Shown one piece after another: positions 17,331 to 41,730 of a stretch of 64,000 nt of DNA; within the stretch, counting starts at the first letter, position 1, and every line of letters begins with the position of its first letter. Origin of the DNA: Rubellimicrobium arenae (GTDB lineage Bacteria; Pseudomonadota; Alphaproteobacteria; Rhodobacterales; Rhodobacteraceae); the NCBI RefSeq assembly GCF_017916275.1, contig NZ_JAFMST010000010.1:64726-128725 (forward strand), in the 5' to 3' direction. The notes under the pieces are model-generated. The model did not search any database, was not told the origin of the DNA, and saw only the letters and a program-made list of their open reading frames with translations. The position numbers were made by a program, and so were the translations under genes.

Positions 17331-18281
17331 TCAGGTCAGGCCGGCGCGCTGTGAGCCCGGCGAGATGCCATACCGTTCGCGGAACACGCGGGAAAAATGC
17401 GAGGTGGAGTTGAAGCCGCTGGCCATCGCGATCTCGGACAGGGACTGCTCGCTTTGGACGATCAGGTTGCGCGCCCGGTGAAGGCGCAGCTCCATCGCAT
17501 AGCGCTTGGGCGAGGTGCCGAGATGACGGTCGAAGAGCCGCTCGAGCTGGCGGGTCGAGATCCCGAGCTCGGCGGCGACCTCGCAGGGCCGGGGCGGCGC
17601 CTCGAGACGCTCCTCGAAGATCTTGACCGCGCGAACCAGGGTGGAGTTCCGCGTCCCGTGGCGCGCCTGGACCGAGACGCGCTGGCCGGCGCTGCCCTCG
17701 CGCACGGCATTGTAGACCATCTGGTCAGCCACCTCGACGGCAAGGTCCTTGCCGTGCTCGAGGCCAATCATGTGCAGCATCAGGTCCGCCGCGGCGGTCC
17801 CGCCCGAAGCGGTGACAAAGCGCGGTCCGGCCACGAACACGGACGGGCGCAGGATCACCTCGGGGAACCGCTCGGACATGAGGTCGTGGTAGGCCCAGTG
17901 GATCGCCGTCTCGACCCCGTCGAGGAAGCCGGCCTCGGCCAGGACGAAGGCGCCCGAGCAGATGGCGCCGATCCGGCGCCCGCGGGCCTTTTCGCGCCGG
18001 AGGAAGGCGAGCACCTCGGGTGTCACGCGACGCTCGACGTTCAGGCCCGAGACGACAAAGAGCCGCGCGTCGCGGTCGAGCGGATCGAGCCCGCCGTCCA
18101 CGCGGGTCAGGAGGCCGTTGGAGCTGCGTGCATCCCGCCCGGCCTCGGAGATCAGCGACCAGCGGTAAAGGGTCCGACCGGCCACGAGGTTCGCGATCCG
18201 CAGCGGCTCGATCGCGCAGGAGAAGGCGAGATGGGTGAAATCCTCGATGAGGAGGAAGGCGATCGACTGGGGCTCGGTCAT
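17331..18281 (-). CDS. GlxA-family (DJ-1/PfpI + AraC) transcriptional regulator, GbdR-like
   Basis: This 316-residue protein has an N-terminal DJ-1/PfpI-like domain (residues about 5-180) with the elbow GAICSGAFVLAEAG and a family-typical FVTASGG. It is followed by an AraC-type DNA-binding domain (about 215-310) with LGISTRQLERLFDRHLG and EIAMASGFNSTSHFSRVFRERYG, the two helix-turn-helix units. Members of this family such as GbdR and CdhR control glycine betaine, dimethylglycine and carnitine catabolism. It sits directly downstream of a betaine-type ABC operon on the same strand, which supports a similar role here. The Cys in the elbow is present, although these regulators are not thought to be catalytic. 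Confidence 0.9.
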   Translation of the reverse strand: MTEPQSIAFLLIEDFTHLAFSCAIEPLRIANLVAGRTLYRWSLISEAGRDARSSNGLLTRVDGGLDPLDRDARLFVVSGLNVERRVTPEVLAFLRREKARGRRIGAICSGAFVLAEAGFLDGVETAIHWAYHDLMSERFPEVILRPSVFVAGPRFVTASGGTAAADLMLHMIGLEHGKDLAVEVADQMVYNAVREGSAGQRVSVQARHGTRNSTLVRAVKIFEERLEAPPRPCEVAAELGISTRQLERLFDRHLGTSPKRYAMELRLHRARNLIVQSEQSLSEIAMASGFNSTSHFSRVFRERYGISPGSQRAGLT

Positions 18282-18312
18282 GGCGGCACGCGGGGCAGGC
18301 GGGGGGAAAGGA

Positions 18313-18328
18313 CGCCCGTTCCCGGGCG
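18313..18328 (-). terminator. Possible terminator after proX
   Basis: A perfect 6-bp stem CGCCCG-TTCC-CGGGCG lies in the 60-bp gap after the proX stop. On the minus strand it is followed by TCCTTTCC, a weak pyrimidine tail. It may attenuate read-through into the regulator gene rather than terminate fully. Confidence 0.4.
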
Positions 18329-18341
18329 CCCTCGGTGTGGT

Positions 18342-19331
18342 TCAGTTGGGGACCGCGGCGCGGGCCGCGGCGAGCCAGGAGTCGTATTCCGCCTGATGGG
18401 CGGCGATCCATTCGTCGGCGTGACGCTCGATGTCCTCGTCGCTGTCCTCGCCCGACGAGATGCGCAGGGCTTCGGCCGAGATGTCGTTGATGTCGATCGT
18501 TGCGGCCTCGAACAGGGCGCGCGCCGCCGGGTTCGCCTCGAGGAAGTCGTTGCGGGCGACGACGCGGATCGAGTCGACGGCGAAGCCCAGGTTCTTGCCC
18601 TCGAATTCCGTGTTGGCGGTCGCGCCGTCCGGCAGCGACGTATAGGGCACGGACAGCCATTCGGCGTCCCGGCCCGGGACCAGCTCGCCCGCGACCCAAT
18701 AGGGCGTCCAGGTGTAGTACAGGATCGACTGGCCGTTCTCGAGGCGGGCCATCGAATCGGCGATCATCGCCTGATAGGCGCCCTGGTTGTGGGTGACGGT
18801 GTCGCGCAGGCCATACTCGTCGAGGTGATGCTCGATGACGCGCTCGCAGCCCCAGCCGGGGATGCAGCCTGCGAGGTCCGCCTTGCCGTCGCCGTCGGCG
18901 TCGAAGCGCTTGGCGACCTCGGGGTCGGCAAGCTGGCTGAGATCGGTGATCCCGGCGTCGTAGCTGGCCTTGTCCACCATGTAGCCCTGGAGCGCGCCCT
19001 TGATGAGGGTGCCGACCTTGGTCAGCACGGCGTCGCCGCCCGCTTCCTGGAAGAAGGAGTCGTGGAGCACGTCCCAGCTCACCGCCGTGAAGTCGGCGTC
19101 GCCCGCGCCCACTGCGAGGTGGAGCGTCTGGTACTCCGCCTCGTCGGGCTCGGCGATGGTGTAGCCCAGGTCCTCGAGGGCCCGGAACAGGATCAGGTGC
19201 TGCATGTGCTCCTCGATCTGCACGGGCATGATCGGGCGCACGGTGACGCCTTCGCCGGGCTTGTCCTGCGCCAGGAGCGCGGACGGCGCGAGCGTCATCG
19301 CCAGGAGGGCGGCGAGCTTAAGCTGTTTCAT
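18342..19331 (-). CDS. proX: Glycine betaine/proline-betaine-type substrate-binding protein (ProX-like)
   Basis: This 329-residue periplasmic binding protein has a signal peptide (residues 1-21, ending SALLAQ). It shows the OpuAC/ProX hallmarks ADFTAVSWDVLHDSF, GCIPGWGCERVIEHHL and LYYTWTPYWV, the aromatic residues of which build the quaternary-ammonium cage in ProX. An acidic DADGDGKADL loop lies near residue 148. It overlaps the end of the permease gene by 14 bp, so the operon order is ATPase-permease-binding protein. The likely ligand is a trimethylammonium or dimethylammonium carboxylate such as glycine betaine or proline betaine, in line with the catabolic genes around it. Confidence 0.92.
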   Translation of the reverse strand: MKQLKLAALLAMTLAPSALLAQDKPGEGVTVRPIMPVQIEEHMQHLILFRALEDLGYTIAEPDEAEYQTLHLAVGAGDADFTAVSWDVLHDSFFQEAGGDAVLTKVGTLIKGALQGYMVDKASYDAGITDLSQLADPEVAKRFDADGDGKADLAGCIPGWGCERVIEHHLDEYGLRDTVTHNQGAYQAMIADSMARLENGQSILYYTWTPYWVAGELVPGRDAEWLSVPYTSLPDGATANTEFEGKNLGFAVDSIRVVARNDFLEANPAARALFEAATIDINDISAEALRISSGEDSDEDIERHADEWIAAHQAEYDSWLAAARAAVPN

Positions 19332-20307
19332 GGATCGTTTTCCCTGTTGTCTGCTTTTGGTCTTGTTCGTGATGTCCGCGTTGCCGGACGAGGTGGAGCA
19401 CGGCGCCGACCGGGCCGCTTTCCCACCAATGGTGATGCCCGCGCTCCCGCGTCGAACGGCCGAGCCCCTGGGTGATCCGGTCCAGCACGATGGCCAGGAT
19501 CACGATGCCAAGGCCGCCGACGATGGCCTTGCTCGCATCGAGCCGGCCCATGGCGCGCAGCACCTCGTTGCCGAGGCCCTTGACCGAGATCATCGAGGCG
19601 ATGACCACCATCGACAGCGACAGCATGATGGTCTGGTTGAGCCCGGCCAGGATCGTCGGCGCCGCGAGCGGCAGCTCGACCTTGGTCAGGATCTGCCGGG
19701 GCGTGGCCCCGAACGCGCGGGCGGCCTCGACGACCGAGGCGTTCACGCCGCGGATGCCGAGCGAGGTGAGGCGCACGATCGGCGGCAGGGCGAAGATGAT
19801 GGTGACGATCACGCCCGAGACGTTGCCGATGCCCATGAGCATCACGACCGGCACGAGGTACACGAAGGCCGGGATGGTCTGCATGGTGTCGAGGACGGGG
19901 CGCAGCGCCGCCTCGAACCTGTCGCTCTTGCCGGCAAGGATCCCGAGCGGCAGCCCGATGAGGACGCAGACGATCACCGACGCGATGACGATGGCGAGCG
20001 TCGTCATGGCCAGCGACCAGGCATCGGGCGTCAGGAAGCCGAGCACCAACAGGCAGCCTCCCACCAGGAGGGCGGTGCGCCGGCCGGCGGCCTGCCAGGC
20101 GATCAGGACGAGAAGCGCAAGCATCACGAGCGGCGGAACCGCCTGGAGCGTCGCTTCGATCCAGGTGATCAGGCCGTCGAGGACCCGCTTGAGCGGATCG
20201 ATCGCCGCACGGTGGCTGATGGCCCAGTGCTTGATGCCGTCGGCGCGGTCGGCGATGTCGAGATCGACCGAGCGGAACGGGTCCAGGATGTTGAATCCGT
20301 CTGCCAT
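19318..20307 (-). CDS. proW: Betaine ABC transporter permease (ProW-like)
   Basis: This 329-residue membrane protein has about seven hydrophobic segments and the binding-protein-dependent transport signature (ARAFGATPRQILTKVELPLAAPTILAGLNQT, spread over residues about 190-220). The N terminus (DPFRSVDLDIADRADGIKHW) resembles ProW. The C-terminal tail is unusually long and His/Gln-rich (HHHWW, then RQRGHHEQDQ) and reads into the next gene, so its last 5 codons overlap proX. The start overlaps the ATPase stop as TGATG. It forms the channel of the betaine importer with the flanking genes. Confidence 0.92.
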   Translation of the reverse strand: MADGFNILDPFRSVDLDIADRADGIKHWAISHRAAIDPLKRVLDGLITWIEATLQAVPPLVMLALLVLIAWQAAGRRTALLVGGCLLVLGFLTPDAWSLAMTTLAIVIASVIVCVLIGLPLGILAGKSDRFEAALRPVLDTMQTIPAFVYLVPVVMLMGIGNVSGVIVTIIFALPPIVRLTSLGIRGVNASVVEAARAFGATPRQILTKVELPLAAPTILAGLNQTIMLSLSMVVIASMISVKGLGNEVLRAMGRLDASKAIVGGLGIVILAIVLDRITQGLGRSTRERGHHHWWESGPVGAVLHLVRQRGHHEQDQKQTTGKTIHETA

Positions 20308-21398
20308 CAGGCTGCTCCTCGCATGGAAAGGGTGTTGGTTTCGGACCGTCCCTGAATCCCGCGCAGGAGCGCCCCCTTGGTGACGACGCCGAGCCGCTGG
20401 GCGCCTTCGGACACGAGGATCGGATGGTCGCTGCCGACGGCGAGGTCGACGAGCGCGTTGAGGGTGTCCCCCGGCCGGGCCACAGGCCAGCCCGCCGCGT
20501 CGAGAGGGCCGTTCTCGCGCTCGTAGAGGCCGAGCGGCTGCATGATGCGGCCGGCCGTGACCAGGTCGAGCTTGGAGATGCCGGCCACGAAGTCGGCGAC
20601 GTAGGCGTCGGCGGGACGAGTCACGATCTCCTCGGGCGTGCCGACCTGCACCAGCACCCCGTCCTTCATGATCGCGATGCGGTGGCCGATGCGGATCGCC
20701 TCGTCCAGGTCGTGGGTGATGAAGACCGTGGTCTTGTGCATCCGCGCCGCGAGATCGATGAACACGTCTTGGAGCTGCCGCCGGATCAGCGGGTCGAGCG
20801 CCGAGAAGGGCTCGTCCATCAGCAGGATGGACGGGTCGGCGGCGATCGCGCGGGCCAGGCCCACGCGCTGCTGCATCCCGCCCGAAAGCTCGTCGGGGTA
20901 CTTCGCCTCCCAGCCCGTGAGGTCCACCGCATCGATGGCCCGTGCCGCGATCCGGGCGCGTTCCTCGTCGGGTCGGCCCCGCACCTCGAGCGAGAAGGCC
21001 ACGTTGTCGCGCACGGTGCGGTGCGGCATCAGGGCCATGTTCTGGAAGACCATCCCGATCTGTTCGGCCCGAAGCGCCCGCAGGTCGCGGGCGTTCATGG
21101 CCGAAACGTTGCGGCCCTCGATGTGGATGGTGCCGTGGGTGGGCTCGATCAGGCGGTTGATATGGCGGATCAGGGTCGACTTGCCCGATCCCGACAGCCC
21201 CATGATGCAGAAGATCTCGCCCCGCCCGACGGTGAAGCTGGCGTCCCTGACGCCGACGACGCAGCCGAAGCGGTCGCGAACCTCCGCCTTGGAAAGGTTG
21301 TCCCTGAGGATCGCCTCCATCGCCTGACGGGCCCGGGACCCGAACACCTTCCAGATGTTCCGGACCTCGATGGCGACGCTTCGTTCCGTTGTGGCCAT
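20307..21398 (-). CDS. proV: Betaine ABC transporter ATPase (ProV-like)
   Basis: This 363-residue ATPase of the OpuA/ProV type has the family N-terminal motif EVRNIWKVFG and a Walker A, GLSGSGKST. The signature is LSGGMQQRVGLARA, Walker B is ILLMDEPFSALDP, and a C-terminal extension carries a CBS-like segment (ILVSEGAQRLGVVTKGALL) that in ProV/OpuA senses ionic conditions. A purine-rich GAGGGAGAG about 7 bases before the ATG at 21398 selects this start. The gene leads the V-W-X operon and is transcribed away from the GntR regulator, with an inverted repeat between them. Confidence 0.93.
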   Translation of the reverse strand: MATTERSVAIEVRNIWKVFGSRARQAMEAILRDNLSKAEVRDRFGCVVGVRDASFTVGRGEIFCIMGLSGSGKSTLIRHINRLIEPTHGTIHIEGRNVSAMNARDLRALRAEQIGMVFQNMALMPHRTVRDNVAFSLEVRGRPDEERARIAARAIDAVDLTGWEAKYPDELSGGMQQRVGLARAIAADPSILLMDEPFSALDPLIRRQLQDVFIDLAARMHKTTVFITHDLDEAIRIGHRIAIMKDGVLVQVGTPEEIVTRPADAYVADFVAGISKLDLVTAGRIMQPLGLYERENGPLDAAGWPVARPGDTLNALVDLAVGSDHPILVSEGAQRLGVVTKGALLRGIQGRSETNTLSMRGAA

Positions 21399-21526: not shown

Positions 21527-22240
21527 ATGGCCGACACGAGCCGGAGCCGCAAGGCAAACTGCGCCGAGGACCTGCGGCGGCGCATCCTGACGCAGGAGCT
21601 CGAGCCGGGCAGCACGCTCGATGAAACCGAGCTCGCCGCAGCCTACGAGATGTCGCGGCCGCCCCTGCGCGAGACGCTGCGCCAGCTTGCGGGGGAGGGT
21701 TACGTCGTCCTGCGCGAGAACCGGGCGGCGCAGGTCGCGCCGATGTCGCACAAGTCCCTGCGCAACTTCTTCGTCGTGGCGCCGATGATCTATTCGGCGG
21801 TGAGCCGGCTCGCCGCCCTCCATGCGACGCGGGCCCAGGTCGATCGTCTCAGGGCGCTCCAGGCCCAGTTCCGCGCCGCCATCCGCGAGGGGGACACGGC
21901 GGGCCGGGCGCTCACCAACGAACGGTTCCACGCCCTTATCGGCGAGATGGCCGACAACGAATACCTGCTGCCGAGCCTCCGGCGGCTGCTCATCGACCAT
22001 ACGCGGATCGGGATGACCTTCTATTCGTCCCGCAATCGGTCGCTGGCCTCTCGTCAGGAGGTGGCGGCCGATCAGCACGACCAGTTCATCGACCTCATCG
22101 AAGCGGGGGACGCCGACGGCGCCGCCGCGCTCGCCATCGCCCACTGGGAGCTTTCCCGGGCCGAGATCGAGAGCTTTGTAACGCCCCCGGGGCTCGACAT
22201 TCCGCTCGGCGCAAGCCCGAGCGCGAGGGAGACAGCATGA
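21527..22240 (+). CDS. GntR-family regulator, FadR/FCD subfamily
   Basis: This 237-residue regulator has an N-terminal winged helix (LRRRILTQELEPGSTLDETELAAAYEMSRPPLRETLRQLAGEGYVV, split over residues 17-62). A C-terminal all-helical FCD domain has metal-binding-type residues (NERFHALIGEMADN and a later DQHDQFIDLIEAGD). The ATG at 21527 follows GGGGAG by four bases, so the upstream ATG at 21503 is not needed. The gene overlaps the downstream DapA-type gene in an ATGA and is divergent from proVWX, so it probably senses the imported compound or a breakdown product and controls both units. Confidence 0.92.
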   Translation: MADTSRSRKANCAEDLRRRILTQELEPGSTLDETELAAAYEMSRPPLRETLRQLAGEGYVVLRENRAAQVAPMSHKSLRNFFVVAPMIYSAVSRLAALHATRAQVDRLRALQAQFRAAIREGDTAGRALTNERFHALIGEMADNEYLLPSLRRLLIDHTRIGMTFYSSRNRSLASRQEVAADQHDQFIDLIEAGDADGAAALAIAHWELSRAEIESFVTPPGLDIPLGASPSARETA

Positions 22241-23178
22241 AGTTCGAAGGGATCTACACGCCCGCCGTCACGCCGCACCGCGAGGATGGCTCGATCGACC
22301 GCGACGGCTTCGTGGCCATGATCGACTACCTCGCCGCAGCCGGCGTCCACGGCATCATCATCGGCGGCTCGACGGGCGAGTACTATGCCCAGTCGCTCGA
22401 GGAGCGCGAGGAGCTCGCGGCTCTGGCCAAGGACGCGATCGCTGGACGCACGGCGCTGATCGTGGGCACGGGCGCGATCAAGCAGGAGGACTCGATCCGC
22501 ATGGCCGGCTTTGCGGCAAGGCTGGGGGCGGATGCGATCCTCGTGGGCTCGCCGCCCTACGCGGTGCCGACCGAACGCGAGAACGCGCTCAACGCGCTGG
22601 CGATCGACCGCGCGGCCGACCTGCCGATCATGCTCTACAACTACCCCGGCCGCATGGGCGTCAACATGGGCGAGGAGTTCCTCGACCGCGTGGGCCGGTC
22701 GCGGAACTTCCAGTCGATCAAGGAAAGCTCGGGGGACGTGAACCGCATCCACCTGCTGGCCCGGGACTACCCGCATATCCAGATGTCCTGCGGGATGGAC
22801 GACCAGGCGCTCGAGTTCTTCGCCTGGGGGGCGCAGAGCTGGGTCTGCGGCGGATCGAACTTCCTGCCGCACGAGCACATCGCGCTCTGGCAGGCCTGCG
22901 CCGTGGAGGGCGACTTCGCCAAGGGCCGCCGGATCATGTCCGCGATGATGCCGCTCATGCGCGTGCTCGAGCAGGGGGGCAAGTTCATCCAGTGCATCAA
23001 GCACGGGGTGGAGATGAACGGCCTCCGGTCCGGGCCGCCCCGGCCGCCGCTCAAGGCGCTCAACAAGGACGACAAGCGCGAGCTGGAGCAGGTCGTGCGC
23101 GTGCTCAAGGCGACCGTCGCCGCCATCCTGGCCGAAGGCTCGGCCGTCACCCCCCTGCGCGCGGAGGCCGCGGAATGA
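22237..23178 (+). CDS. DapA-family lyase/deaminase (dihydrodipicolinate synthase-like)
   Basis: This 313-residue class I aldolase-type TIM barrel has Schiff-base Lys162 in SIKESSGD, the catalytic Tyr134 in YNYPGR and the GGSTGE loop (residues 43-48). The superfamily includes DHDPS, N-acetylneuraminate lyase, KDG aldolase and 1-pyrroline-4-hydroxy-2-carboxylate deaminase of hydroxyproline catabolism. The genomic setting, in an ATGA-coupled chain with an aldehyde dehydrogenase and near an HpbD-like epimerase, favours the hydroxyproline-type deaminase or a related 2-oxo-acid aldolase over lysine biosynthesis. The exact reaction cannot be decided from sequence. No residue expected for catalysis is missing. 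Confidence 0.85.
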   Translation: MKFEGIYTPAVTPHREDGSIDRDGFVAMIDYLAAAGVHGIIIGGSTGEYYAQSLEEREELAALAKDAIAGRTALIVGTGAIKQEDSIRMAGFAARLGADAILVGSPPYAVPTERENALNALAIDRAADLPIMLYNYPGRMGVNMGEEFLDRVGRSRNFQSIKESSGDVNRIHLLARDYPHIQMSCGMDDQALEFFAWGAQSWVCGGSNFLPHEHIALWQACAVEGDFAKGRRIMSAMMPLMRVLEQGGKFIQCIKHGVEMNGLRSGPPRPPLKALNKDDKRELEQVVRVLKATVAAILAEGSAVTPLRAEAAE

Positions 23179-24677
23179 ACGCCCTGCTAACCATCGACGA
23201 CTACTCGGCCATCGCCGCGACCGTGGTGCCGCCGACCGGAGCCTTCATCGACGGGTCCTTCCGTCCGGCGGTCTCGGGCAAGACCTTCCAGACCGTGAAC
23301 CCGGCGACGGGCGACGTCCTGGCCGAGGTCGCCTCCTGCGAGGCCGCCGACGTGGACTTCGCGGTCCAGAAGGCCCGCGAGGCCTTCGACGACGGGCGCT
23401 GGTCCCGGCTCCACCCCGGCGCGCGCAAGGAAGTCCTGATCCGGCTCGCCAAGCTGATGACGCGCAACGCGCGCGAGCTCGCGGTGCTGGAAAGCCTCGA
23501 TTCCGGCAAGCCGATCTATGACTGCGAGACGGTGGACATCCCCGAGACGATCCATGTGCTCAAGTGGCACGCAGAGCTGATCGACAAGATCTACGACCAG
23601 GTCTCGCCCGCCTCGGACGACCACATCGCCATGATCCTGCGCGAGCCGGTGGGCGTCGTGGGCCTGGTGCTGCCCTGGAACTTTCCGCTGCTGATGCTGG
23701 CCTGGAAGATCGGGCCGGCGCTGGCCTCGGGCTGCTCGGTGATCGTGAAGCCGGCGTCGGAGACCTCGCTCACCGCGCTGCGCGTGGCGGAGCTGGCCAT
23801 GGAGGCCGGGCTGCCCGCGGGCGTCCTGAACGTCGTGCCGGGCTCGGGCCGCGGCGCGGGCGAGCCCTTGGGCCGCCACATGGACGTGGACATGGTGAGC
23901 TTCACCGGATCGACGGCCACGGGGCGGCGCTTCCTGTCGTATTCGGCCGAGTCGAACCTCAAGGAGGTCGTCCTTGAGATGGGGGGCAAGAATCCCGCCG
24001 TGGTGCTCGATGATGCCGAGAACCTGGACCGCGTGGCGGCCCATATCGTCAACGGCGCCTTCTGGAACATGGGCGAGAACTGCTCGGCCGCCTCGCGCCT
24101 GATCGTGCAGAACGGCATCAAGGAGGAGCTCCTCGATCGTGTTCTCGCCCATGCCCGCGAATGGCCGATGGGCAACCCCCTCGACCCGCGCAACCGGGTG
24201 GGCGCCCTCGTGAGCCAGTCGCATTTCGCCAAGGTCTCCTCCTATCTCGGTGGGGCCGACCGGGTGCTGATGGGCGGAGGGACCCAGGGCGGCGCCTTCG
24301 TGGAGCCCACGATCCTGGAGGTCGGCGACCCCAAGGCGCTCCCGGCCCGCGAAGAGATCTTCGGGCCGATCCTGTCGGTCCTGACCGTGGGCAGCTTCGA
24401 CGAGGCGATCCGGCTCGCCAACGACACGGATTACGGCCTTGCGGCATCGATCTTCACGTCCAACGTGAAGAAGGCCATCCGAGGGGCGCGGGCGATCCGC
24501 GCGGGTACAGTGACGGTGAACAGCTTCGGCGAGGGGGACATCACGACGCCCTTCGGCGGCTACAAGCAGTCGGGCTTCGGGGGGCGCGACAACGGCATCC
24601 ACGCGCACGACCAGTATACGCAGCTCAAGACGATCTGGGTGGACCTCAGCGACGACGCCGACGAGGCGGTGGACTGA
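23175..24677 (+). CDS. NAD(P)-dependent aldehyde dehydrogenase
   Basis: This 500-residue aldehyde dehydrogenase has the catalytic Cys in NMGENCSAASR, the general base Glu in LEMGGKNP, the cofactor loop FTGSTATGRR and PWNFPLLM. It most resembles the PuuC/betaine-aldehyde type that oxidises amino-aldehydes and semialdehydes. The ATG at 23175 overlaps the DapA stop (ATGA) and the frame above it is an artefact of the DapA coding region. In this operon it would oxidise a semialdehyde such as 2-oxoglutarate semialdehyde if the DapA homologue is a pyrroline-carboxylate deaminase. Other aldehydes are possible. Confidence 0.9.
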   Translation: MNALLTIDDYSAIAATVVPPTGAFIDGSFRPAVSGKTFQTVNPATGDVLAEVASCEAADVDFAVQKAREAFDDGRWSRLHPGARKEVLIRLAKLMTRNARELAVLESLDSGKPIYDCETVDIPETIHVLKWHAELIDKIYDQVSPASDDHIAMILREPVGVVGLVLPWNFPLLMLAWKIGPALASGCSVIVKPASETSLTALRVAELAMEAGLPAGVLNVVPGSGRGAGEPLGRHMDVDMVSFTGSTATGRRFLSYSAESNLKEVVLEMGGKNPAVVLDDAENLDRVAAHIVNGAFWNMGENCSAASRLIVQNGIKEELLDRVLAHAREWPMGNPLDPRNRVGALVSQSHFAKVSSYLGGADRVLMGGGTQGGAFVEPTILEVGDPKALPAREEIFGPILSVLTVGSFDEAIRLANDTDYGLAASIFTSNVKKAIRGARAIRAGTVTVNSFGEGDITTPFGGYKQSGFGGRDNGIHAHDQYTQLKTIWVDLSDDADEAVD

Positions 24678-35339: not shown

Positions 35340-35353
35340 GTCCTGTCCCTCGC

Positions 35354-36262
35354 CTACTGTCGTGCGCGCCGCGCTTGCGACGCTTGCAGGCTCGACCGGC
35401 CGAAATGGCGTTCGACGCGCGCCTGGATGAGGCTGAACACGGTGGTCGCCAGGAGATACCACAGGCAGGCCACGATCAGCAGCGGGATCGTCTGGTAATT
35501 GCGCGAATAGATCGTCTGCACGGAATACAGCAGGTCCGACAGGGCGATGACGCTCACGAGGGACGAGGTCTTGAGCATCCCGATCGCCTGGTTTCCGGTC
35601 GGCGGGACGATGATCGGCATGGCCTGGGGCAGCACGATGCGCCACAGCGCCCGGCCGCTGGTCATGCCGAGCGACTTGGCCGCCTGCCTTTGCCCGGGAT
35701 CGACCGCCAGCAGCCCGCTGCGGATGATCTCGGACATGTAGGCGCCTTCGTTGAGGCCCAGTCCGAGGACTGCGGCCATGACCGGGGAGATCGCGGTGTT
35801 CGTCGGCACGGAGATCCAGAGCGACGTGAACGGGATGCCGATCGAAAGCTCGGGGAAGAGGGCGCCCAAGTTGTACCAGAAGATCAGCTGCACGAGCACG
35901 GGCGTGCCGCGGAAGAACCAGATGTAGGCGTTGGCGATCGTCGCGATCACGACGTTGCCCGACATGCTCATGACCGCGAAGACGGTGCCGAGCACGATCC
36001 CGATGACCATCGTCACCAGGGTCAGCCACAGCGTGAGATAAAGTCCCGACAGGATGCGCGGGTCGAACAGGTACTCGCCCACCACCGTCCAGCCGAAGTT
36101 GGGGTTGCTGGCGATCGACCACAGGAAGGACACCACCACCAGGAGGAGCGCCACCGCGGCGATGCGCGTTCCCCAGGCCTTGGCCGGAACATAGGTGAGA
36201 CGCGGCTCCTCGGAGGGCCTGTGGTCCGCCACTGAGTTGGAATGCGCTTCCAGCACGGTCAT
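35354..36262 (-). CDS. Polar-amino-acid-type ABC transporter permease
   Basis: This 302-residue HisM-type permease has a cytoplasmic N terminus, a first long hydrophobic segment (residues 34-52) and about five further helices. The membrane signature is EIIRSGLLAVDPGQRQAAKSLGMTSGRALWRIVLPQAM (split over about 177-214). It carries FFRGTPVLVQLIFWYN, characteristic of the polar amino acid family, and only one permease gene is present, so it may form a homodimer. A stem-loop separates it from the binding-protein gene upstream. Confidence 0.92.
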   Translation of the reverse strand: MTVLEAHSNSVADHRPSEEPRLTYVPAKAWGTRIAAVALLLVVVSFLWSIASNPNFGWTVVGEYLFDPRILSGLYLTLWLTLVTMVIGIVLGTVFAVMSMSGNVVIATIANAYIWFFRGTPVLVQLIFWYNLGALFPELSIGIPFTSLWISVPTNTAISPVMAAVLGLGLNEGAYMSEIIRSGLLAVDPGQRQAAKSLGMTSGRALWRIVLPQAMPIIVPPTGNQAIGMLKTSSLVSVIALSDLLYSVQTIYSRNYQTIPLLIVACLWYLLATTVFSLIQARVERHFGRSSLQASQARRARQ

Positions 36263-36328: not shown

Positions 36329-37216
36329 TCAGTTGCTCGGCAGGGTGGACAGGTTGATGCCGGGCTCATGGTCCATGCGCATCGGCGTCACGGCCCACTT
36401 CTCGTAGATCGCGTCGTAGGTGCCGTCGGCCATCACCTCCTTGAGCGCGGCCAGGAGCGCCTCGCCCAGGTCGGTCTCGTCCTTGCGGAAGGCGATGCCG
36501 CTCGGCTGGCGGGGCAGGATGCTCATGGGCACGACCTTGATGGGACGCGGCGCCGCCTTCATGATCTCCTGGGCCGAAGCCGCCGAGGTCAGGACGAAGT
36601 CGGTGCGGGCCGAATACAGCGACAGGAGCGTGGCGTCCGAGGTGCCGAACTCCGACGCGGTCGGCGCCGGCAGGCCGGCTTCCTCGCAGGCGGCCGCCAT
36701 CTCGCCGGTGATCATGCCGACCCATTCGGTGCCGCTCTGCGCCGCGCCGTTGAGGCCGCAAAGGCCGAGATGGTCGGTGATCTCGGCGCCCTTGTCCTCG
36801 AGGACATAGGCCGAGGAGGTGGTGTAGCCGTAATCGACGAAGCTCACCACCTGCTGCCGCTCGGCGTTGTCGGTGATGCCTTCCATGGCGATGTCCCAGC
36901 GGTTCGACTGCACGCCGGGAATGAGCGAGTCGAAGGCGACCGACGTCACCTCCATCTTCACGCCCAGGCGCTCCGCGATGGCGTTCCAGAGGTCCACCTC
37001 GAAGCCGACCATCTCGCCGGATTCGTCGATGTACTGGAAGGGCGGATACTTCGCGTCGGTGACCAGCTTGATGACGCCGGCGTCGCGGTACTTCGCGGGC
37101 AGAAGGTCCATCGCCCCTTCGGCGTTCGCGGCGCGGATGTCCGCCGTCGTGGCCAGGGCCACGGCGGCCAGCCCGCAGAAGGCCAGATGACGCCAGCCCG
37201 TCGTTGCTTTTTGCAT
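36329..37216 (-). CDS. Polar-amino-acid-type substrate-binding protein
   Basis: This 295-residue family 3 periplasmic binding protein has a signal peptide (residues 1-32) and the motif GEMVGFEVDLWNAIAERLG (residues about 66-84). IAMEGITDNAERQ is followed by SFVDYGYTTSSAYVL. The C-terminal segment LLAALKEVMADGTYDAIYEKW is typical. It starts the operon SBP-permease-ATPase-FAD oxidoreductase, and the aldehyde dehydrogenase upstream on the same strand may belong too. The ligand is not readable from sequence. The catabolic neighbours suggest a cyclic or N-methylated amino acid. Confidence 0.92.
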   Translation of the reverse strand: MQKATTGWRHLAFCGLAAVALATTADIRAANAEGAMDLLPAKYRDAGVIKLVTDAKYPPFQYIDESGEMVGFEVDLWNAIAERLGVKMEVTSVAFDSLIPGVQSNRWDIAMEGITDNAERQQVVSFVDYGYTTSSAYVLEDKGAEITDHLGLCGLNGAAQSGTEWVGMITGEMAAACEEAGLPAPTASEFGTSDATLLSLYSARTDFVLTSAASAQEIMKAAPRPIKVVPMSILPRQPSGIAFRKDETDLGEALLAALKEVMADGTYDAIYEKWAVTPMRMDHEPGINLSTLPSN

Positions 37217-37311: not shown

Positions 37312-38802
37312 TCATCCGATGACGAACGGGTTCGCGATCTCCTCGGCGGTCGACAGCCAGACGGCCTTGGTCTGGAGATACTCGCGGATCCCCTCGACGC
37401 CGTTCTCGCGGCCGATGCCGCTCTTCTTGTAGCCGCCGAATGGCGTCGTGTAGGACACGTCCCGGTAGGTGTTGACCCAGACGCTCCCGGCCTCGAGCCG
37501 TTCCGACATCAGCAGGGCACGGCGCATGTCGGAGGTCCAGACCCCCGCCGCGAGGCCGAACTCGCTGTCGTTGGCGATGGCGATGGCCTCCTCCGGGTCG
37601 TCGAAGGGGATCGCGGCCAGGACCGGGCCGAACACCTCCTCGCGGGCGATGCGCATCTCGTTGTGCACGCCGGAGAAGATCGTGGGCTCGATGAAGAAGC
37701 CGGCTTCGCATTCCGCGATCTCGGGCCGTCCGCCGCCCAGCCGCAGCTCCGCGCCCTCCTGGCGGGCGATGTCGATGTAGCCCAGCACGCGGTCGTACTG
37801 CATCCGGTTCGCGATCGGGCCGATGCGGGTGTCCTTGTGCCGGGGATCGCCGATGCGGGCGGTCTTGGTGAAGGCCGTCAGCTTCTCAAGGAACTCGTCG
37901 TGGATGGACCTGTGCAGGAGCAGGCGCGAGCCCGCGATGCAGGTCTGGCCGACCGCGCCGAAGATGCCGCCCACGACGCCCCGCACCGCGTTGTCGAGAT
38001 TGGCGTCGCCGAAGACGATGTTCGGGGACTTGCCGCCCAGCTCGAGGCTGACGCGCTTGATGTCCTTCGCGGCCAGCGAATACAGGTGCGCCCCCGTCTT
38101 CGTGGAGCCGGTGAAGCCGACATGCCGGGTCAGCGGATGCGTCACGAGGGGCTCGCCCACCTCGGGGCCGTAGCCGGTCACCACGTTGATCACGCCCGGC
38201 GGGAAGCCCGCGGCCTCGACCAGCTCCATGAGCTTGAGCGCGGTCGCCGAGGTGTGCTCGGCGGGCTTCATCACCAGCGTGTTGCCGGCCGCCAGGGCCG
38301 GGGCGGCCTTGAGCGAGAAGAGGAACAGCGGCGCGTTCCAGGGGACGATGCCGATGCAGACGCCAAGAGGCTCATGCCGCGAGAAGCTGAGCGCCGGCTT
38401 GTCGCAGGGATGGACGGAGCCTTCGATCTTGTCGGCCAGGCCCGCGTAGTAGTGGAACCACCGCGGGACATAGCGGATCTGGTGCCGCATCTCGGCCAGC
38501 AGGCGGCCGTTGTCGCGGACCTCGATCTCGGCCAGGTCGTCCGCGTTCTGCTCGATCAGCTCGGCGAAGCGCTGGATGATGCGGCCCCGGAGGCTCGGGT
38601 GCATGCGGCGCCAGGGGCCTTCGGTGAAGGCCCGGTGCGCCGCGCGCACGGCCCGGTCGGCGTCCTCGGCGTTGCCCCGCGGCACGAGAGCCCAGGGCTC
38701 GGCGGTGAAGGGGTCCACGGTCTCGATGTAGTCCCCCGACGCCGGAGCGACCCATTCGCCATCGATATACATGGACAGCTTCGGCAGGCGTTCGGTCGAC
38801 AT
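37312..38802 (-). CDS. Aldehyde dehydrogenase (second copy in island)
   Basis: This 496-residue NAD(P)-dependent aldehyde dehydrogenase has the catalytic Cys in AVGQTCIAGSR, the general base Glu in SLELGGKSP and the cofactor motif FTGSTKTGAH. GPVLAAIPF and YTTPFGGYKKSGIG also lie in the sequence. It is clearly different from the ALDH at 23175, so it has another substrate. A strong AAGGAGG, spaced 4-5 bases from the ATG at 38802, fixes the start. It is divergent from the GntR/UTRA regulator and the region between carries two copies of an AGTGATATCA palindrome, so it is probably the main target of that regulator. Confidence 0.9.
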   Translation of the reverse strand: MSTERLPKLSMYIDGEWVAPASGDYIETVDPFTAEPWALVPRGNAEDADRAVRAAHRAFTEGPWRRMHPSLRGRIIQRFAELIEQNADDLAEIEVRDNGRLLAEMRHQIRYVPRWFHYYAGLADKIEGSVHPCDKPALSFSRHEPLGVCIGIVPWNAPLFLFSLKAAPALAAGNTLVMKPAEHTSATALKLMELVEAAGFPPGVINVVTGYGPEVGEPLVTHPLTRHVGFTGSTKTGAHLYSLAAKDIKRVSLELGGKSPNIVFGDANLDNAVRGVVGGIFGAVGQTCIAGSRLLLHRSIHDEFLEKLTAFTKTARIGDPRHKDTRIGPIANRMQYDRVLGYIDIARQEGAELRLGGGRPEIAECEAGFFIEPTIFSGVHNEMRIAREEVFGPVLAAIPFDDPEEAIAIANDSEFGLAAGVWTSDMRRALLMSERLEAGSVWVNTYRDVSYTTPFGGYKKSGIGRENGVEGIREYLQTKAVWLSTAEEIANPFVIG

Positions 38803-39051: not shown

Positions 39052-39798
39052 GTGGACCGGGATCAGCCCCTGTACGAGCAGATCAAGACGGTGATCGATC
39101 GGCGGATCGAGACCGAGGAATGGCCCGCAAATTTCCAGGTCCCCTCGGAGGAGGAGCTCGCCGGCGAATTCGGCGCCTCGCGGCTGACCGTGCGCCGGGC
39201 CTTGCGCGAACTTCAGGCCGATGGCGTGCTCGTGCGCATCCAGGGCCGGGGCACCTTCGTCATCGGCCCGCGGATGCAATGCGCGATCTTCAACCTCCCC
39301 GACATCACCGAGGAGATCACCTTCTCGGGCGGCGCGCACACGTGCCGGGTGCTGGCCCACGCGGCGCTGGGGCGGGAAAGCCCCGGCCGCAACATGCTGC
39401 TCTTGCCGGCCGAGGGCGTCGTGTTCCATTCGCGCCTGCTCCACCTCGAGGACGGCACGCCGATCCAGCTCGAGGACCGCTACGTGAATGCCGCGGAGGC
39501 GCCCGGGTACATCGATCAGGACTTTTCGAAGGTCAGCCCCCACAGCTGGCTCGTGCGCGAGACCACCGTGACGACCGTGGACAACACGATCCGGGCCATC
39601 CGCGCCGACGAGGAGACCCGCCAGCACCTGCAGATCGACGCCAACCAGCCATGCCTGCTGCTGGACCGCTCGACCTGGCGCGACGGCATTCCCGTCACCC
39701 GCAGCCGCTTCATCAGCCCTGGCGACCGCTACCGGCTCCGCTCGACCCACGAGGCGCGCACGAATCGGATCGTCACAACACCCGGCATGGGCCGCTGA
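39052..39798 (+). CDS. GntR-family regulator with UTRA sensor domain (HutC subfamily)
   Basis: This 248-residue regulator has an N-terminal winged helix (PLYEQIKTVIDRRIETEEW, VPSEEELAGEFGASRLTVRRALRELQADG) followed by RIQGRGTFV. A UTRA ligand-binding domain then runs to the end (FHSRLLHLEDGTPIQLEDRYVN, CLLLDRSTWRDGIPVTRSRF). The GTG at 39052 has AGGTGG four bases upstream and matches where the family begins. The frame is open 51 codons further up, but that part contains the operator palindrome. It precedes ubiD and ubiX on the same strand and is divergent from an aldehyde dehydrogenase, so it probably responds to their substrate. Confidence 0.9.
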   Translation: MDRDQPLYEQIKTVIDRRIETEEWPANFQVPSEEELAGEFGASRLTVRRALRELQADGVLVRIQGRGTFVIGPRMQCAIFNLPDITEEITFSGGAHTCRVLAHAALGRESPGRNMLLLPAEGVVFHSRLLHLEDGTPIQLEDRYVNAAEAPGYIDQDFSKVSPHSWLVRETTVTTVDNTIRAIRADEETRQHLQIDANQPCLLLDRSTWRDGIPVTRSRFISPGDRYRLRSTHEARTNRIVTTPGMGR

Positions 39799-39819
39799 GC
39801 CCGCCCGCAAGGAGCCCCA

Positions 39820-41145
39820 ATGAGAGAGTTCGTTCGCAAGCTTCAGGAGCGCGGTGATCTCATGGTCGTCGACCGCGAGATCGACCCCGCCCACGAGCTG
39901 GCCGCCGTCACCCACCTGGCGCAGAAGCGCTGGGGCAAGCCCGTGATGTTCACCAACGTCAAGGGCACCCGCTTTCCGGTGGTGACCAACGTCTACAGCA
40001 CGCGCGAGCGGCTGGGCGAGGTGATCGGCATCGATCCGCGCGACTTCTGCACCCAGTGGAGCAAGCTGTCGTCGCTGGCCTCCGCCGAGATGAAGGAGCC
40101 GCTGGTCCCCGCGACCGAGACGCCCGGCTACGAGGAGGTCAAGCTGTCGGACCTGCCGCTGATCACCTATTCGGATCGTGACGGCGCGCCCTACTTCACG
40201 TCGGCGATGTTCATCGCGAAGGACCCGGAGACCGGGGTGGGGAACCTGTCCTTCCACCGCTCCATGTTCATCAGCGACAGCGAGCTGCGCTGCCGGCTCG
40301 CTCCGCGGCACCACCTGACCATCTACCACGAGAAGGCCGAGAAGATGGGCCGGCCGCTGGAAGCGGCCATGCTGATCGGCCCGCCCGCGCACGCCTTCCT
40401 GACCGCCGCGGCGCCCTTGCCCTACGACGTGGACGAGCTCGAGGTCGCGGCCCGCCTGCGCGGCCGGCCGATCCCGATGCGCAAGTGCAACCACATCGAT
40501 CTCGAGGTTCCCGCCGAGACCGAGGTGGTGATCGAGGGCCGCTTCCTGCCCAATGAGCGCCGCCCCGAAGGCCCCTTCGGCGAGTTCATGGGCTACTACG
40601 TCCCCGTCGGCCCGAATGCCGTGTTCGAGGTGCTGGGCGTCACCGTGCGCAAGGATGCGATGTTCCACTCGATCCTCTGCGGCTCCCCCGAGGAGGTGCT
40701 GACGCTCGAGCTGTCGGTTTCGGCCAACATCTACCAGCGGCTGAGCGCGGCCCTGCCCGGCATCGTCAACGTCACCTGCCAACCCTTCGTCAACCACGCC
40801 ATCGTGCAGATCGCGCCCCAGTTCGAGGGCCACGCGCGTCAGGTCATGCTCGCCACGATCGGCGCCGAGCCGATCTGGGCCAAGCAGATCACCGTCGTCG
40901 ACACGGACGTGAACATCTATGACATGGACGACGTGCAGTGGGCGATCCTGACTCGGTGCCGGCCCGACAAGGACATGATGATCATCCCCGACACCCCCTC
41001 GTTCTACCGCGATGAGGCCAAGGACCACTGGGGCCGCCTCCTGGTCGACGCCACCAAGCCCTGGGGGCGCGAGGCGGAGTTCGAGCGCAAGCGCCTGCGG
41101 ATGGTGGACGAGGTCCGCCTCGGGGACTGGTTCGCGGGCGCCTGA
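39820..41145 (+). CDS. ubiD: UbiD-family prenylated-FMN-dependent decarboxylase
   Basis: This 441-residue protein has the UbiD motif RRPEGPFGEFMGYY (residues about 247-260), which carries an Arg and the Glu residues of the active site. It also has TNVYSTRERLGE and VVDTDVNIYDMDDVQWAI. UbiD enzymes use prenylated FMN, made by UbiX, to (de)carboxylate aromatic or unsaturated acids. It is shorter than E. coli UbiD (497) and is cotranscribed with ubiX (3 bases between genes) behind a GntR/UTRA regulator. This points to a catabolic decarboxylase for an aromatic or heteroaromatic acid rather than ubiquinone synthesis. Confidence 0.9.
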   Translation: MREFVRKLQERGDLMVVDREIDPAHELAAVTHLAQKRWGKPVMFTNVKGTRFPVVTNVYSTRERLGEVIGIDPRDFCTQWSKLSSLASAEMKEPLVPATETPGYEEVKLSDLPLITYSDRDGAPYFTSAMFIAKDPETGVGNLSFHRSMFISDSELRCRLAPRHHLTIYHEKAEKMGRPLEAAMLIGPPAHAFLTAAAPLPYDVDELEVAARLRGRPIPMRKCNHIDLEVPAETEVVIEGRFLPNERRPEGPFGEFMGYYVPVGPNAVFEVLGVTVRKDAMFHSILCGSPEEVLTLELSVSANIYQRLSAALPGIVNVTCQPFVNHAIVQIAPQFEGHARQVMLATIGAEPIWAKQITVVDTDVNIYDMDDVQWAILTRCRPDKDMMIIPDTPSFYRDEAKDHWGRLLVDATKPWGREAEFERKRLRMVDEVRLGDWFAGA

Positions 41146-41148
41146 CCG

Positions 41149-41730
41149 ATGAGCCCGCCACGACTGATCATCGGCATTTCCGGGGCCTCGGGCGCGGCCT
41201 ACGGCATCCGCGCCCTGGAGCTCGCGCGGGCGGCGGGGGTCGAGACCCACCTCGTCGTGTCGCGATCGGCGCTTCTGACGCTGCACCAGGAGCTCGGCCT
41301 GCAGAAGGCCGACCTCGAGGGCCGCGCGGACGTCATCCATCCGGTGGCGGACATCGGCGCCACGATCGCCTCGGGCTCGTTCCGCACGATGGGGATGCTG
41401 ATCGCGCCCTGTTCGGTCAAGACCATGTCCGAGATCGCATCCGGCGTGACCTCGACGCTCATGAGCCGGGCCGCCGACGTCGTGCTGAAGGAGCGTCGCC
41501 GACTGGTCCTGATGCTGCGCGAAACGCCGCTGCACCTGGGCCATCTGCAGACGATGACCGCGCTGACGCAGATGGGCGCGATCATCATGCCCCCGGTCCC
41601 CGCCCTTTACGCCCATCCCCAGAGCATCGACGAGATGGTGACCCATTCCACCGGCCGAGCGCTCGACCTGTTCGACATCGACGCCGGCGCGGTGAAGCGC
41701 TGGAGCGGGTTGAAGGAGAACCTGTCCTGA
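41149..41730 (+). CDS. ubiX: UbiX, flavin prenyltransferase
   Basis: This 193-residue flavin prenyltransferase makes the prenylated FMN cofactor for UbiD. It has the N-terminal ISGASGAAYGIRALE (residues about 9-23), the conserved APCSVKTMSEIASG (about 86-99) and RRLVLMLRETPLH, a typical phosphate- and prenyl-binding segment. Length is as expected. It directly follows ubiD on the same strand, so enzyme and cofactor maker are produced together. Confidence 0.95.
   Translation: MSPPRLIIGISGASGAAYGIRALELARAAGVETHLVVSRSALLTLHQELGLQKADLEGRADVIHPVADIGATIASGSFRTMGMLIAPCSVKTMSEIASGVTSTLMSRAADVVLKERRRLVLMLRETPLHLGHLQTMTALTQMGAIIMPPVPALYAHPQSIDEMVTHSTGRALDLFDIDAGAVKRWSGLKENLS

What the first reader, a model, noticed from the sequence alone, without database searches (positions are those of the whole stretch)
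17331..41730. A 24-kb betaine-type amino-acid catabolic island with two importers and at least five regulator-target units
The sequence shows a ProVWX-type and a polar-amino-acid-type importer, a Rieske oxygenase with reductase, an MttB-family protein, an HpbD-like epimerase, two SDRs, two FAD amine oxidoreductases, a DapA homologue, two different ALDHs and UbiD/UbiX. From known pathways, (hydroxy)proline-betaine breakdown uses epimerase, Rieske demethylase, FAD oxidase, DapA-type deaminase and semialdehyde dehydrogenase. The MttB protein, the SDR pair and the UbiD/UbiX module do not belong to that pathway as I know it. The inference is a broader or different N-methylated cyclic acid (hydroxyproline betaine, or a pyridinium carboxylate such as trigonelline or homarine).
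Basis: partly seen in the sequence, partly recalled or inferred. Interest (0 to 1): 0.75.

Follow-up and report, generated by a model that had tools for sequence, protein, structure and literature searches.

The report
Hydroxyproline-betaine cluster beside unrelated UbiD cassette
The stretch is not one large new pathway: most of it is a known type of gene cluster for eating (hydroxy)proline betaine, here carrying both an oxygen-dependent and a vitamin-B12-type demethylase plus an unexplained pair of dehydrogenases, and it happens to lie next to a separate travelling set of genes of unknown substrate.

Summary
Synteny splits them into three modules. A (17331-30511): AraC/ProXWV, GntR-DapA-ALDH1-DAO1 and MttB-HpbD-SDR1-SDR2; this block recurs in the same order in Cereibacter sphaeroides 2.4.1 and, in variants, at HpbD loci (MttB 47, SDR1 46, DapA 45, DAO1 48 of 80). 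B (30770-33083): an Stc2-like Rieske oxygenase and reductase (10 of 80). C (33268-42304): DAO2, polar-amino-acid ABC, ALDH2, HutC-like regulator, UbiD, UbiX, TIGR02444; each is in 0 of 80 HpbD loci, and versions of the cassette lie without hpb genes around them in Ochrobactrum, Sinorhizobium pSymA and Paracoccus. A+B is best read as the known hydroxyproline-betaine/proline-betaine pathway. The SDR pair belongs too but has no assigned step; I predict stereo-inversion through a 4-oxo intermediate (low confidence). Module C is a separate cassette of unknown substrate. Nothing found supports trigonelline or homarine. I count three regulators, not five. Verdict: known kind, new variant, moderate interest.

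The parts
17331..18281 (-). AraC/GlxA-type regulator (DJ-1/PfpI + AraC HTH), module A
   Evidence: Pfam; GbdR-like but below its cut-off (304.6 of 480 bits); in 28 of 80 HpbD loci
18342..19331 (-). ProX-type betaine-binding protein, module A
   Evidence: Pfam OpuAC; NF008334 ProX 422 bits over the 215 cut-off; 19 of 80 HpbD loci
19318..20307 (-). ProW-type permease, module A
   Evidence: Pfam; synteny; 20 of 80 HpbD loci
20307..21398 (-). ProV-type ATPase, module A
   Evidence: TIGR01186 344.6 bits over the 326.6 cut-off; 25 of 80 HpbD loci
21527..22240 (+). GntR-FCD regulator, module A
   Evidence: Pfam; 43 of 80 HpbD loci
22237..23178 (+). DapA-family protein, predicted Pyr4H2C deaminase, module A
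   Evidence: Pfam; 45 of 80 HpbD loci; near an annotated 4-hydroxyproline epimerase in Paracoccus methylovorus
23175..24677 (+). ALDH1, predicted alpha-ketoglutarate semialdehyde dehydrogenase, module A
   Evidence: Pfam; 45 of 80 HpbD loci
24869..26290 (+). DAO1, predicted cis-4-hydroxy-D-proline oxidase, module A (start uncertain; a start near 24950 would match the relatives' length)
   Evidence: Pfam DAO in the ORF 24161-26290; 48 of 80 HpbD loci; start read from the translation
26331..27065 (-). SDR2, module A
   Evidence: Pfam; 45 of 80 HpbD loci; N, S, Y in 48 of 48, K in 47 of 48, Q37 and R38 each in 44 of 48
27062..27796 (-). SDR1, module A
   Evidence: Pfam; 46 of 80 HpbD loci; PDB 3uxy 437 bits; D37 and N-S-Y-K in 47 of 47
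27807..28916 (-). HpbD-type 2-epimerase of the enolase superfamily, module A
   Evidence: PDB 4e8g/4izg/4j1o 633.6 bits and 2pmq 510.8 bits with both lysines aligned
28946..30511 (-). MttB-superfamily methyltransferase, module A
   Evidence: Pfam MTTB 733.6 bits; PDB 4yyc, 2qne and 9yce (glycine betaine methyltransferase)
30770..31840 (-). Rieske-oxygenase reductase, module B
   Evidence: Pfam; GbcB-like, below its cut-off (354 of 500); next to the Rieske gene in the 10 Rieske-positive HpbD loci of 80
31845..33083 (-). Rieske N-demethylase, Stc2-like, module B
   Evidence: PDB 3vca/4qup 547 bits; Rieske motif
33268..34563 (-). DAO2, FAD amine oxidoreductase, module C
   Evidence: Pfam; relatives at E 1e-60 in 20 plasmid records, all of which also hold a UbiD (19 listed, one annotated)
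34575..35357 (-). polar-amino-acid ABC ATPase, module C
   Evidence: within the ORF 34575-36122; 82% identical in the Ochrobactrum cassette
35354..36262 (-). polar-amino-acid ABC permease, module C
   Evidence: Pfam
36329..37216 (-). family-3 solute-binding protein, module C
   Evidence: Pfam; 76% in Ochrobactrum and 74% in S. meliloti cassettes
37312..38802 (-). ALDH2, module C
   Evidence: Pfam; 85-89% in five UbiD cassettes elsewhere (L007, L008, L009, L055, L057)
39052..39798 (+). HutC-like GntR/UTRA regulator, module C
   Evidence: TIGR02018 256 bits over the 220 cut-off
39862..41145 (+). UbiD-family prFMN decarboxylase, module C
   Evidence: Pfam; nearest solved relative 6h6v, 234 bits; EGPFGE motif at residue 236
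41149..41730 (+). UbiX flavin prenyltransferase, module C
   Evidence: NF004685 248 bits over the 188 cut-off
41780..42304 (+).
   Evidence: Pfam; TIGR02444; in related cassettes

Best explanation
Three adjacent modules. Modules A+B are a (hydroxy)proline-betaine catabolic cluster of the hpb/hyp kind. ProXWV imports the betaine. HpbD epimerises C2 (L to D). One N-methyl is removed either by the Rieske/reductase pair (O2-dependent, as formaldehyde) or by the MttB-type methyltransferase, which would pass it to a shared corrinoid protein (MtgC type) and on to tetrahydrofolate. The second N-methyl is removed by HpbA, encoded elsewhere in the genome. DAO1 oxidises cis-4-hydroxy-D-proline to pyrroline-4-hydroxy-2-carboxylate, DapA deaminates it to alpha-ketoglutarate semialdehyde, and ALDH1 gives alpha-ketoglutarate. 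The SDR pair is predicted to interconvert stereoisomers of the 4-hydroxyl through a 4-oxo intermediate. Module C is a separately acquired cassette in which DAO2 oxidises an imported amine or amino acid, ALDH2 the resulting aldehyde, and UbiD (with prFMN from UbiX) decarboxylates an aromatic or alpha,beta-unsaturated acid. Shown here: gene families, similarity, synteny, conserved residues. Inferred: every reaction in this organism. Weakest: the SDR step and the whole of module C.
For: HpbD: 633.6 bits to 4e8g/4izg/4j1o and 510.8 to 2pmq, both lysines (K164, K266) aligned. Rieske: 547 bits to 3vca/4qup. Module A in the same order in C. sphaeroides 2.4.1 pB, 65-87% identity. In S. bermudensis HTCC2601 (L145) HpbA, Rieske, Red, MttB, HpbD, DAO1, ALDH1, DapA, GntR, ProVWX and AraC lie together at 54-81% identity. 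Co-occurrence at 80 HpbD loci and MttB with HpbD in 18 of 19 genomes. In the same genome: one B12-binding_2 protein (MtgC candidate; the only match), DUF1638 about 0.6 kb from it, two pterin-binding proteins (one an MtgD candidate), and HpbA at 84% identity to that of Rhodobacter sp. CZR27. Aerobic pfam06253 demethylation of glycine betaine through MtgC/MtgD was shown in Ruegeria pomeroyi (PMC12478193; abstract, sections 5 and 9 read). DAAO + DHDPS + ALDH as the hydroxyproline route stated in PMC4113996 (passages). DapA-ALDH1-DAO1 near an annotated 4-hydroxyproline epimerase in P. methylovorus and near two proline-racemase-family genes in Peteryoungia: 2 of the 11 annotated DapA contexts looked at. 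Module C without hpb genes in the stretch in Ochrobactrum, S. meliloti, P. denitrificans, P. pantotrophus, Pseudohalocynthiibacter; each gene in 0 of 80 HpbD loci; UbiD in 2 of 394 family genomes at E 1e-120.
Against: No biochemistry. DapA, ALDH1, DAO1, HpbD, MttB, Rieske and Red score below the curated cut-offs of their best NCBIfam models. DapA is only 26% identical to its best match in a 38-kb stretch of S. meliloti pSymB where I recall the hyp genes to lie (record unannotated). 33 of 80 HpbD loci lack a close MttB and 34 of 80 lack SDR1 within the held flanks, which are short in some loci. The S. bermudensis locus lacks the SDR pair, so it is not essential. HpbA is near HpbD in only 4 of 80. 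76 of 375 family genomes without HpbD hold the same kind of MttB, so it may have further substrates. The exclusive grouping of the module-A-type MttBs rests on a node whose printed support was only 0.172. Four of 48 SDR2s, among them both Desulfobacteria ones, have an NAD-type D37, which weakens a strict NAD/NADP relay. Modules A and C can share a replicon without touching: S. meliloti AK57 pSymA has UbiD at about 140 kb and the module-A DapA at about 574 kb, so adjacency here is not the only case of both in one genome.
Confidence: 0.8

Rival explanations
1. One integrated 24-kb pathway for a different N-methylated cyclic acid (trigonelline, homarine or similar), in which UbiD/UbiX, DAO2 and ALDH2 act after the Rieske, MttB and HpbD steps.
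For: Physical adjacency: ALDH2 to SDR2 run on one strand (38802-26331), with gaps of only 258 nt (MttB-Red) and 184 nt (Rieske-DAO2) at the module borders. One module-C relative carries a glycine-betaine-type ABC.
Against: None of nine module-C genes passes its threshold in any of 80 HpbD loci; module C lies without hpb genes in a 40-kb stretch of Ochrobactrum; among 394 family genomes UbiD and HpbD occur together only in this one. Three literature searches naming homarine or trigonelline showed no matching gene set in their listings.
Confidence: 0.06
2. MttB is the working demethylase of module A and the Rieske pair is a redundant or proline-betaine-specific addition, so module A's demethylation works without oxygen.
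For: C. sphaeroides pB has MttB next to HpbD while its Rieske pair lies elsewhere on the plasmid. Rieske is in 10 of 80 HpbD loci against MttB in 47. Two Desulfobacteria MAG loci have HpbD, an SDR pair, an MttB (36%), ProXWV, a glycyl-radical enzyme and a P5C-reductase-like gene, and no Rieske match.
Against: The Rieske pair lies beside MttB and HpbD in S. bermudensis, Gemmobacter tilapiae and others. No methyl-transfer assay.
Confidence: 0.45
3. DAO1 acts directly on N-methyl-cis-4-hydroxy-D-proline and DapA releases methylamine, so that a single demethylation suffices and HpbA is not needed for the hydroxylated substrate.
For: HpbA lies near HpbD in only 4 of 80 loci, and 4 of 19 HpbD genomes have no HpbA match at E 1e-180 (read from the listing).
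Against: 15 of 19 HpbD genomes, this one included, do have HpbA. The described pathway goes through free cis-4-hydroxy-D-proline (PMC4113996, passages).
Confidence: 0.12
4. Module C degrades an imidazole or histidine-like compound, in line with its HutC-like regulator and its place next to a hut operon.
For: Its regulator passes the HutC model (256 over 220 bits). A hut operon (HutC, I, H, G, U, D) lies at 42565-50455. The S. meliloti and Ochrobactrum cassettes carry a second HutC-like gene.
Against: No hut enzyme gene is annotated in the stretches around the cassettes elsewhere. The two UTRA regulators here share only 33% identity. The S. meliloti ABC homologue is called satABC, a putative arginine transporter (PMC7268258, passage).
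Confidence: 0.15

Closest known systems
trans-4-hydroxyproline-betaine pathway of Pelagibaca (Salipiger) bermudensis (Zhao 2013 and Kumar 2014: not held here, cited through PMC4113996 passages; details recalled)
   Same: HpbD, Rieske/reductase, MttB, DAO1, DapA, ALDH1, GntR, ProVWX and an AraC regulator are shared with locus L145, at 54-81% identity.
   Different: The window adds the SDR1/SDR2 pair, has HpbA elsewhere in the genome, and has module C attached.
Proline-betaine (stachydrine) demethylation Stc2/Stc4, StcD/HpbA
   Same: Rieske 547 bits to PDB 3vca/4qup; Rhodobacter sp. CZR27 has an 80% identical Rieske gene with reductase, GntR, ProVWX, an MttB and an annotated hpbA.
   Different: There the MttB is a different one (43% identical to the window's), and the 29-kb stretch has no HpbD, DapA, ALDH1 or SDR2 match and only a distant SDR (35%).
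MtgBCD corrinoid glycine-betaine demethylation of Ruegeria pomeroyi (PMC12478193)
   Same: pfam06253 methyltransferase, a B12-binding protein with DUF1638 near by, and a spare pterin-binding protein in the same genome.
   Different: The methyltransferase sits with HpbD and hydroxyproline genes; substrate untested; orthology of the partners to MtgC/MtgD rests on domain content only.
S. meliloti pSymA cassette with satABC/potABCD4/SMa2211
   Same: ALDH2, HutC-like, UbiD, UbiX, TIGR02444, DAO2 and the polar-amino-acid ABC.
   Different: S. meliloti adds a TPP enzyme, a racemase, a three-part dehydrogenase, RidA and a second ABC; these are not in the window's module.

Membership tests
HpbD (betaine 2-epimerase) | End-to-end match to the solved HpbD enzymes with both active-site lysines | tested here: met
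   633.6 bits to 4e8g/4izg/4j1o; K164 and K266 aligned with Lys in 4e8g and 2pmq (that these two lysines are catalytic, and that these entries are HpbD, is recalled)
HpbD (betaine 2-epimerase) | Epimerase activity on proline or hydroxyproline betaine | not testable with these tools
   needs enzyme assay
Stc2-type Rieske N-demethylase | Full-length match to Stc2, Rieske C-x-H/C-x2-H motif, reductase gene adjacent | tested here: met
   reductase 4 nt away. That 3vca/4qup are Stc2 is recalled.
GbcAB glycine betaine monooxygenase (NCBIfam) | Score over the curated cut-off | tested here: not met
   494 of 670 bits (oxygenase), 354 of 500 bits (reductase)
Hydroxyproline route (HypO/HypD/HypH type) | DAAO, DHDPS and ALDH genes together with a (hydroxy)proline or betaine epimerase | tested here: met
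   PRS-family epimerase near the trio in 2 of 11 annotated contexts
Hydroxyproline route (HypO/HypD/HypH type) | Close similarity to the S. meliloti HypD sequence | tested here: inconclusive
   26% to the best match in an unannotated 38-kb pSymB stretch; identity of that gene only recalled
MttB superfamily (non-pyrrolysine, MtgB-like) | pfam06253 full length without an in-frame stop, corrinoid partner in the genome | tested here: met
   best PDB relatives 4yyc, 2qne, 9yce
Trimethylamine methyltransferase MttB proper (TIGR02369) | Score over the curated cut-off | tested here: not met
   271 of 525 bits
UbiD/UbiX decarboxylase | UbiD domains and EGPFGE motif with UbiX adjacent | tested here: met
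   (the catalytic role of the motif is recalled)
HmfF 2,5-furandicarboxylate decarboxylase | HmfF substrate-site residues (recalled as His/Arg near positions 296-304 of HmfF) | tested here: inconclusive
   the alignment shows Glu-Glu where 6h6v has Glu-His and no Arg where 6h6v has Ala-Arg-Glu-Ala; numbering not checked against the structure paper; that 6h6v is HmfF is recalled

The most novel reading that the evidence does not exclude
The MttB-HpbD-SDR-SDR core is an oxygen-independent device for any stereoisomer of 4-hydroxyproline betaine. HpbD inverts C2, the two SDRs (one oxidising with NAD, one reducing, often NADP-type) invert C4 through 4-oxoproline betaine, and the corrinoid methyltransferase strips the first methyl. 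Aerobes feed the product into DAO1/DapA/ALDH1; sulfate-reducer relatives feed it into a CutC/HypD-like glycyl-radical enzyme and a P5C-reductase-like enzyme, which would be an anaerobic hydroxyproline-betaine pathway that I did not find described.
Probability: 0.25. Interest if true: 0.65.

Novelty: new variant of a known kind. Interest (0 to 1): 0.4.

Why it matters
It makes a concrete, testable extension of a known osmolyte pathway. Aerobic bacteria seem to pair HpbD with a cobalamin-type demethylase, as recently shown for glycine betaine and as PMC12478193 suggests in general for further pfam06253 proteins. A conserved SDR pair (46 and 45 of 80 HpbD loci) still lacks a step. The work also removes a false lead: the UbiD/UbiX genes say nothing about the betaine substrate.

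Tried and rejected
Rejected: trigonelline or homarine as substrate of the whole stretch. The 0-of-80 result removes the UbiD genes from the argument. Literature searches: one search gave 1 listing (a glycine-betaine paper), one search gave 20 listings of 1,549 without a homarine gene set in view, one search gave 12 listings of 17; trigonelline growth of S. meliloti depends on pSymA (PMC4207669, passage), but nothing ties it to the UbiD cassette there.

Rejected: HpbD as cis-3-hydroxyproline dehydratase (275.5 of 500 bits).

Led nowhere: promoter and terminator scan of 24000-43000 (0 promoter-like sites against 1.2 expected; 5 terminator-like against 4.8 expected); repeat search of 16900-43300 (20 of at least 60 direct families and 25 of 137 inverted pairs shown; none that I recognised as marking a module boundary); GC and GC3 per gene, which do not separate the modules; a search for HpbD or hydroxyproline betaine in the literature (25 of 127 listed, two of which use the term hydroxyproline betaine in their text, neither on this pathway by title and abstract); a search for an anaerobic hydroxyproline-betaine route with glycyl-radical enzymes (10 of 45 listed, none on this by title and abstract). 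The statement that I did not find such a route described rests only (12 of 17 listed) and 101 in an open-licence library.

Not used: structure prediction and fold search.

Full report
What is there. Window genes were called by a codon-usage script, completed by two genes from the ORF list, and identified with Pfam, NCBIfam and PDB sequence searches. Between 17331 and 41730 I find three regulators (AraC/GlxA, GntR-FCD, HutC-like), not five. The window lies on a 164-kb contig of a 4.55-Mb genome. For module A and B proteins the best plasmid hits are Cereibacter, Rhodobacter and other Rhodobacterales, with some Rhizobiaceae; for UbiD they are Sinorhizobium meliloti, at about 91%.

The stretch is a mosaic. 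Module A (17331-30511) recurs in the same order on plasmid pB of C. sphaeroides 2.4.1 at 65-87% protein identity. The same genes, rearranged and in part matching in two pieces each, are on pSymA of S. meliloti AK57. Module B (30770-33083), the Rieske/reductase pair, lies elsewhere on the same C. sphaeroides plasmid and in Rhodobacter sp. CZR27 beside ProVWX, an MttB and an annotated hpbA. Module C (33268-42304) is found in Ochrobactrum quorumnocens with the same five-gene order ALDH2-SBP-permease-ATPase-DAO2, divergent from HutC-like, UbiD, UbiX and TIGR02444 genes, and in variants in S. meliloti pSymA, Paracoccus denitrificans (27), P. pantotrophus (29) and Pseudohalocynthiibacter (46, 62).

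Test of the mosaic. With identity thresholds set per gene, one search counts MttB 47, SDR1 46, SDR2 45, DapA 45, ALDH1 45, DAO1 48, GntR 43, AraC 28, ProV 25, ProW 20, ProX 19, Rieske 10, Red 10, HpbA 4 of 80, and 0 of 80 for each of nine module-C genes (DAO2, three ABC genes, ALDH2, HutC, UbiD, UbiX, DUF2390). Among the 56 longer loci, DapA and MttB occur together in 33, DapA alone in 1, MttB alone in 3, neither in 19 (the loci are related, so the printed p-value does not count independent events). In 394 genomes of the family, UbiD was matched in 2 (this one, and one at 50% identity; E 1e-120), HpbD in 19 (E 1e-120), the MttB in 94 (E 1e-200) and HpbA in 208 (E 1e-180). 18 of the 19 HpbD genomes have the MttB, and only this genome has both HpbD and UbiD. 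Outside the family both modules can share a replicon: S. meliloti AK57 pSymA holds UbiD near 140 kb and the module-A DapA near 574 kb.

How modules A and B work. HpbD aligns end to end with solved HpbD-type structures with both lysines kept. The Rieske protein aligns over nearly its whole length with Stc2 structures (that 3vca/4qup are Stc2 and 4e8g/2pmq HpbD is recalled). In Salipiger (Pelagibaca) bermudensis HTCC2601, the species whose hydroxyproline-betaine pathway I recall from Zhao 2013, HpbA, Rieske, Red, MttB, HpbD, DAO1, ALDH1, DapA, GntR, ProVWX and AraC lie within one 21-kb stretch (L145). [quoted passage not shown] DapA-ALDH1-DAO1 also stands near an annotated 4-hydroxyproline epimerase in Paracoccus methylovorus and near two proline-racemase-family genes in Peteryoungia. 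That is 2 of the 11 annotated DapA contexts I looked at; the other nine show no such gene in the annotation shown.

MttB. It is directly upstream of HpbD in 37 of 45 loci that hold a match of at least 60%. In a tree of 62 MttBs, 49 of the module-A type (45 from HpbD loci, the window's, one from C. sphaeroides, and two plasmid ones without a close HpbD in the stretch) form an exclusive group against 13 others. Their identity to the window protein is 75-92% against at most 48%, though the printed node support was only 0.172. The genome holds candidate partners as described for aerobic glycine-betaine demethylation in Ruegeria pomeroyi (PMC12478193; abstract, sections 5 and 9 read): a B12-binding protein (the only PF02607 match), DUF1638 close to it, and two pterin-binding proteins. 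HpbA, 84% identical to that of CZR27, lies on another contig. So two routes for the first demethylation seem to coexist; which dominates is open.

SDR pair. SDR1 has the full N-S-Y-K set and Asp37 in 47 of 47 aligned sequences (NAD-type). SDR2 has N, S, Y in 48 of 48, K in 47 of 48, and Gln37 and Arg38 each in 44 of 48 (NADP-type), but four, including both Desulfobacteria sequences, have Asp37 (the cofactor rules are recalled). SDR1 has a solved structure, 3uxy (437 bits), whose listed name gives no reaction; the next hit, at 146 bits, is a quinuclidinone reductase, acting on a cyclic amino ketone. In two Desulfobacteria MAG loci an SDR pair stands with HpbD, another MttB (36%), ProXWV, a glycyl-radical enzyme close to the CutC and HypD models but below their cut-offs, and a P5C-reductase-like gene; the activase was identified in L147 only, its counterpart in L144 was not scanned. 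This is why I predict a redox inversion at C4. It is inference: the S. bermudensis locus lacks the pair.

Module C. DAO2 relatives at E 1e-60 occur in 20 plasmid records, all of which also hold a UbiD (19 in the listing, one annotated). ALDH2 and UbiD/UbiX recur with changing importers. Burkholderiaceae relatives of the UbiD (50-51%) also have an ALDH, a TPP enzyme and an FAD oxidoreductase near by. The S. meliloti homologues include satABC, named a putative arginine transporter from TnSeq (PMC7268258, passage; that SMa2195-97 is the same ABC rests on gene order and numbering, with SMa2211 named a TPP protein in a table passage of PMC12542648). UbiD's nearest solved relative is 6h6v (recalled as HmfF), 234 bits, with the EGPFGE motif kept. 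A hut operon begins 260 nt after the module (42565-50455), which may be chance. The substrate remains unknown.

Verdict. A known kind of cluster in a variant with both demethylase types and the SDR pair, plus an unrelated cassette. Interest 0.4; the open questions worth testing are the SDR step and the anaerobic relatives.

Noticed in passing
L147 429-14208; L144 1029-14315: In a Desulfotignum and a Desulfobacteraceae MAG, HpbD stands with an SDR pair, an MttB, ProXWV, a CutC/HypD-like glycyl-radical enzyme (activase identified in L147) and a P5C-reductase-like gene: a possible anaerobic hydroxyproline-betaine pathway.
   Followed up: partly
window 42565-50455: Histidine utilisation operon (HutC, HutI, HutH, HutG, HutU, HutD) directly after module C; the gene at about 43255-44697 was not identified and may be on the minus strand.
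   Followed up: partly
window 228-7893: Nitrous oxide reductase (nos) operon: Fer4_5 protein, NosZ, NosD, an ABC pair, NosL and ApbE.
   Followed up: no
window 24678-24950: ALDH1 and DAO1 are 191-272 nt apart depending on the DAO1 start, whereas the two genes overlap by 4 nt in C. sphaeroides.
   Followed up: partly
L075 (before the window, contig C1:61866-63377): A second MttB paralogue (37% identical) lies about 1.3 kb before the window start; the genome has five MTTB genes in all.
   Followed up: no
L010: On S. meliloti AK57 pSymA the module-A genes are rearranged, and AraC, ALDH1, DAO1, MttB and HpbD match in two pieces each, as if broken or mis-sequenced.
   Followed up: no
L106, L111, L129, L148: HpbD at 68-71% identity also occurs in actinobacteria (Streptomyces, Pseudonocardia, Saccharopolyspora), without the close MttB or SDR genes in the held stretch.
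   Followed up: no
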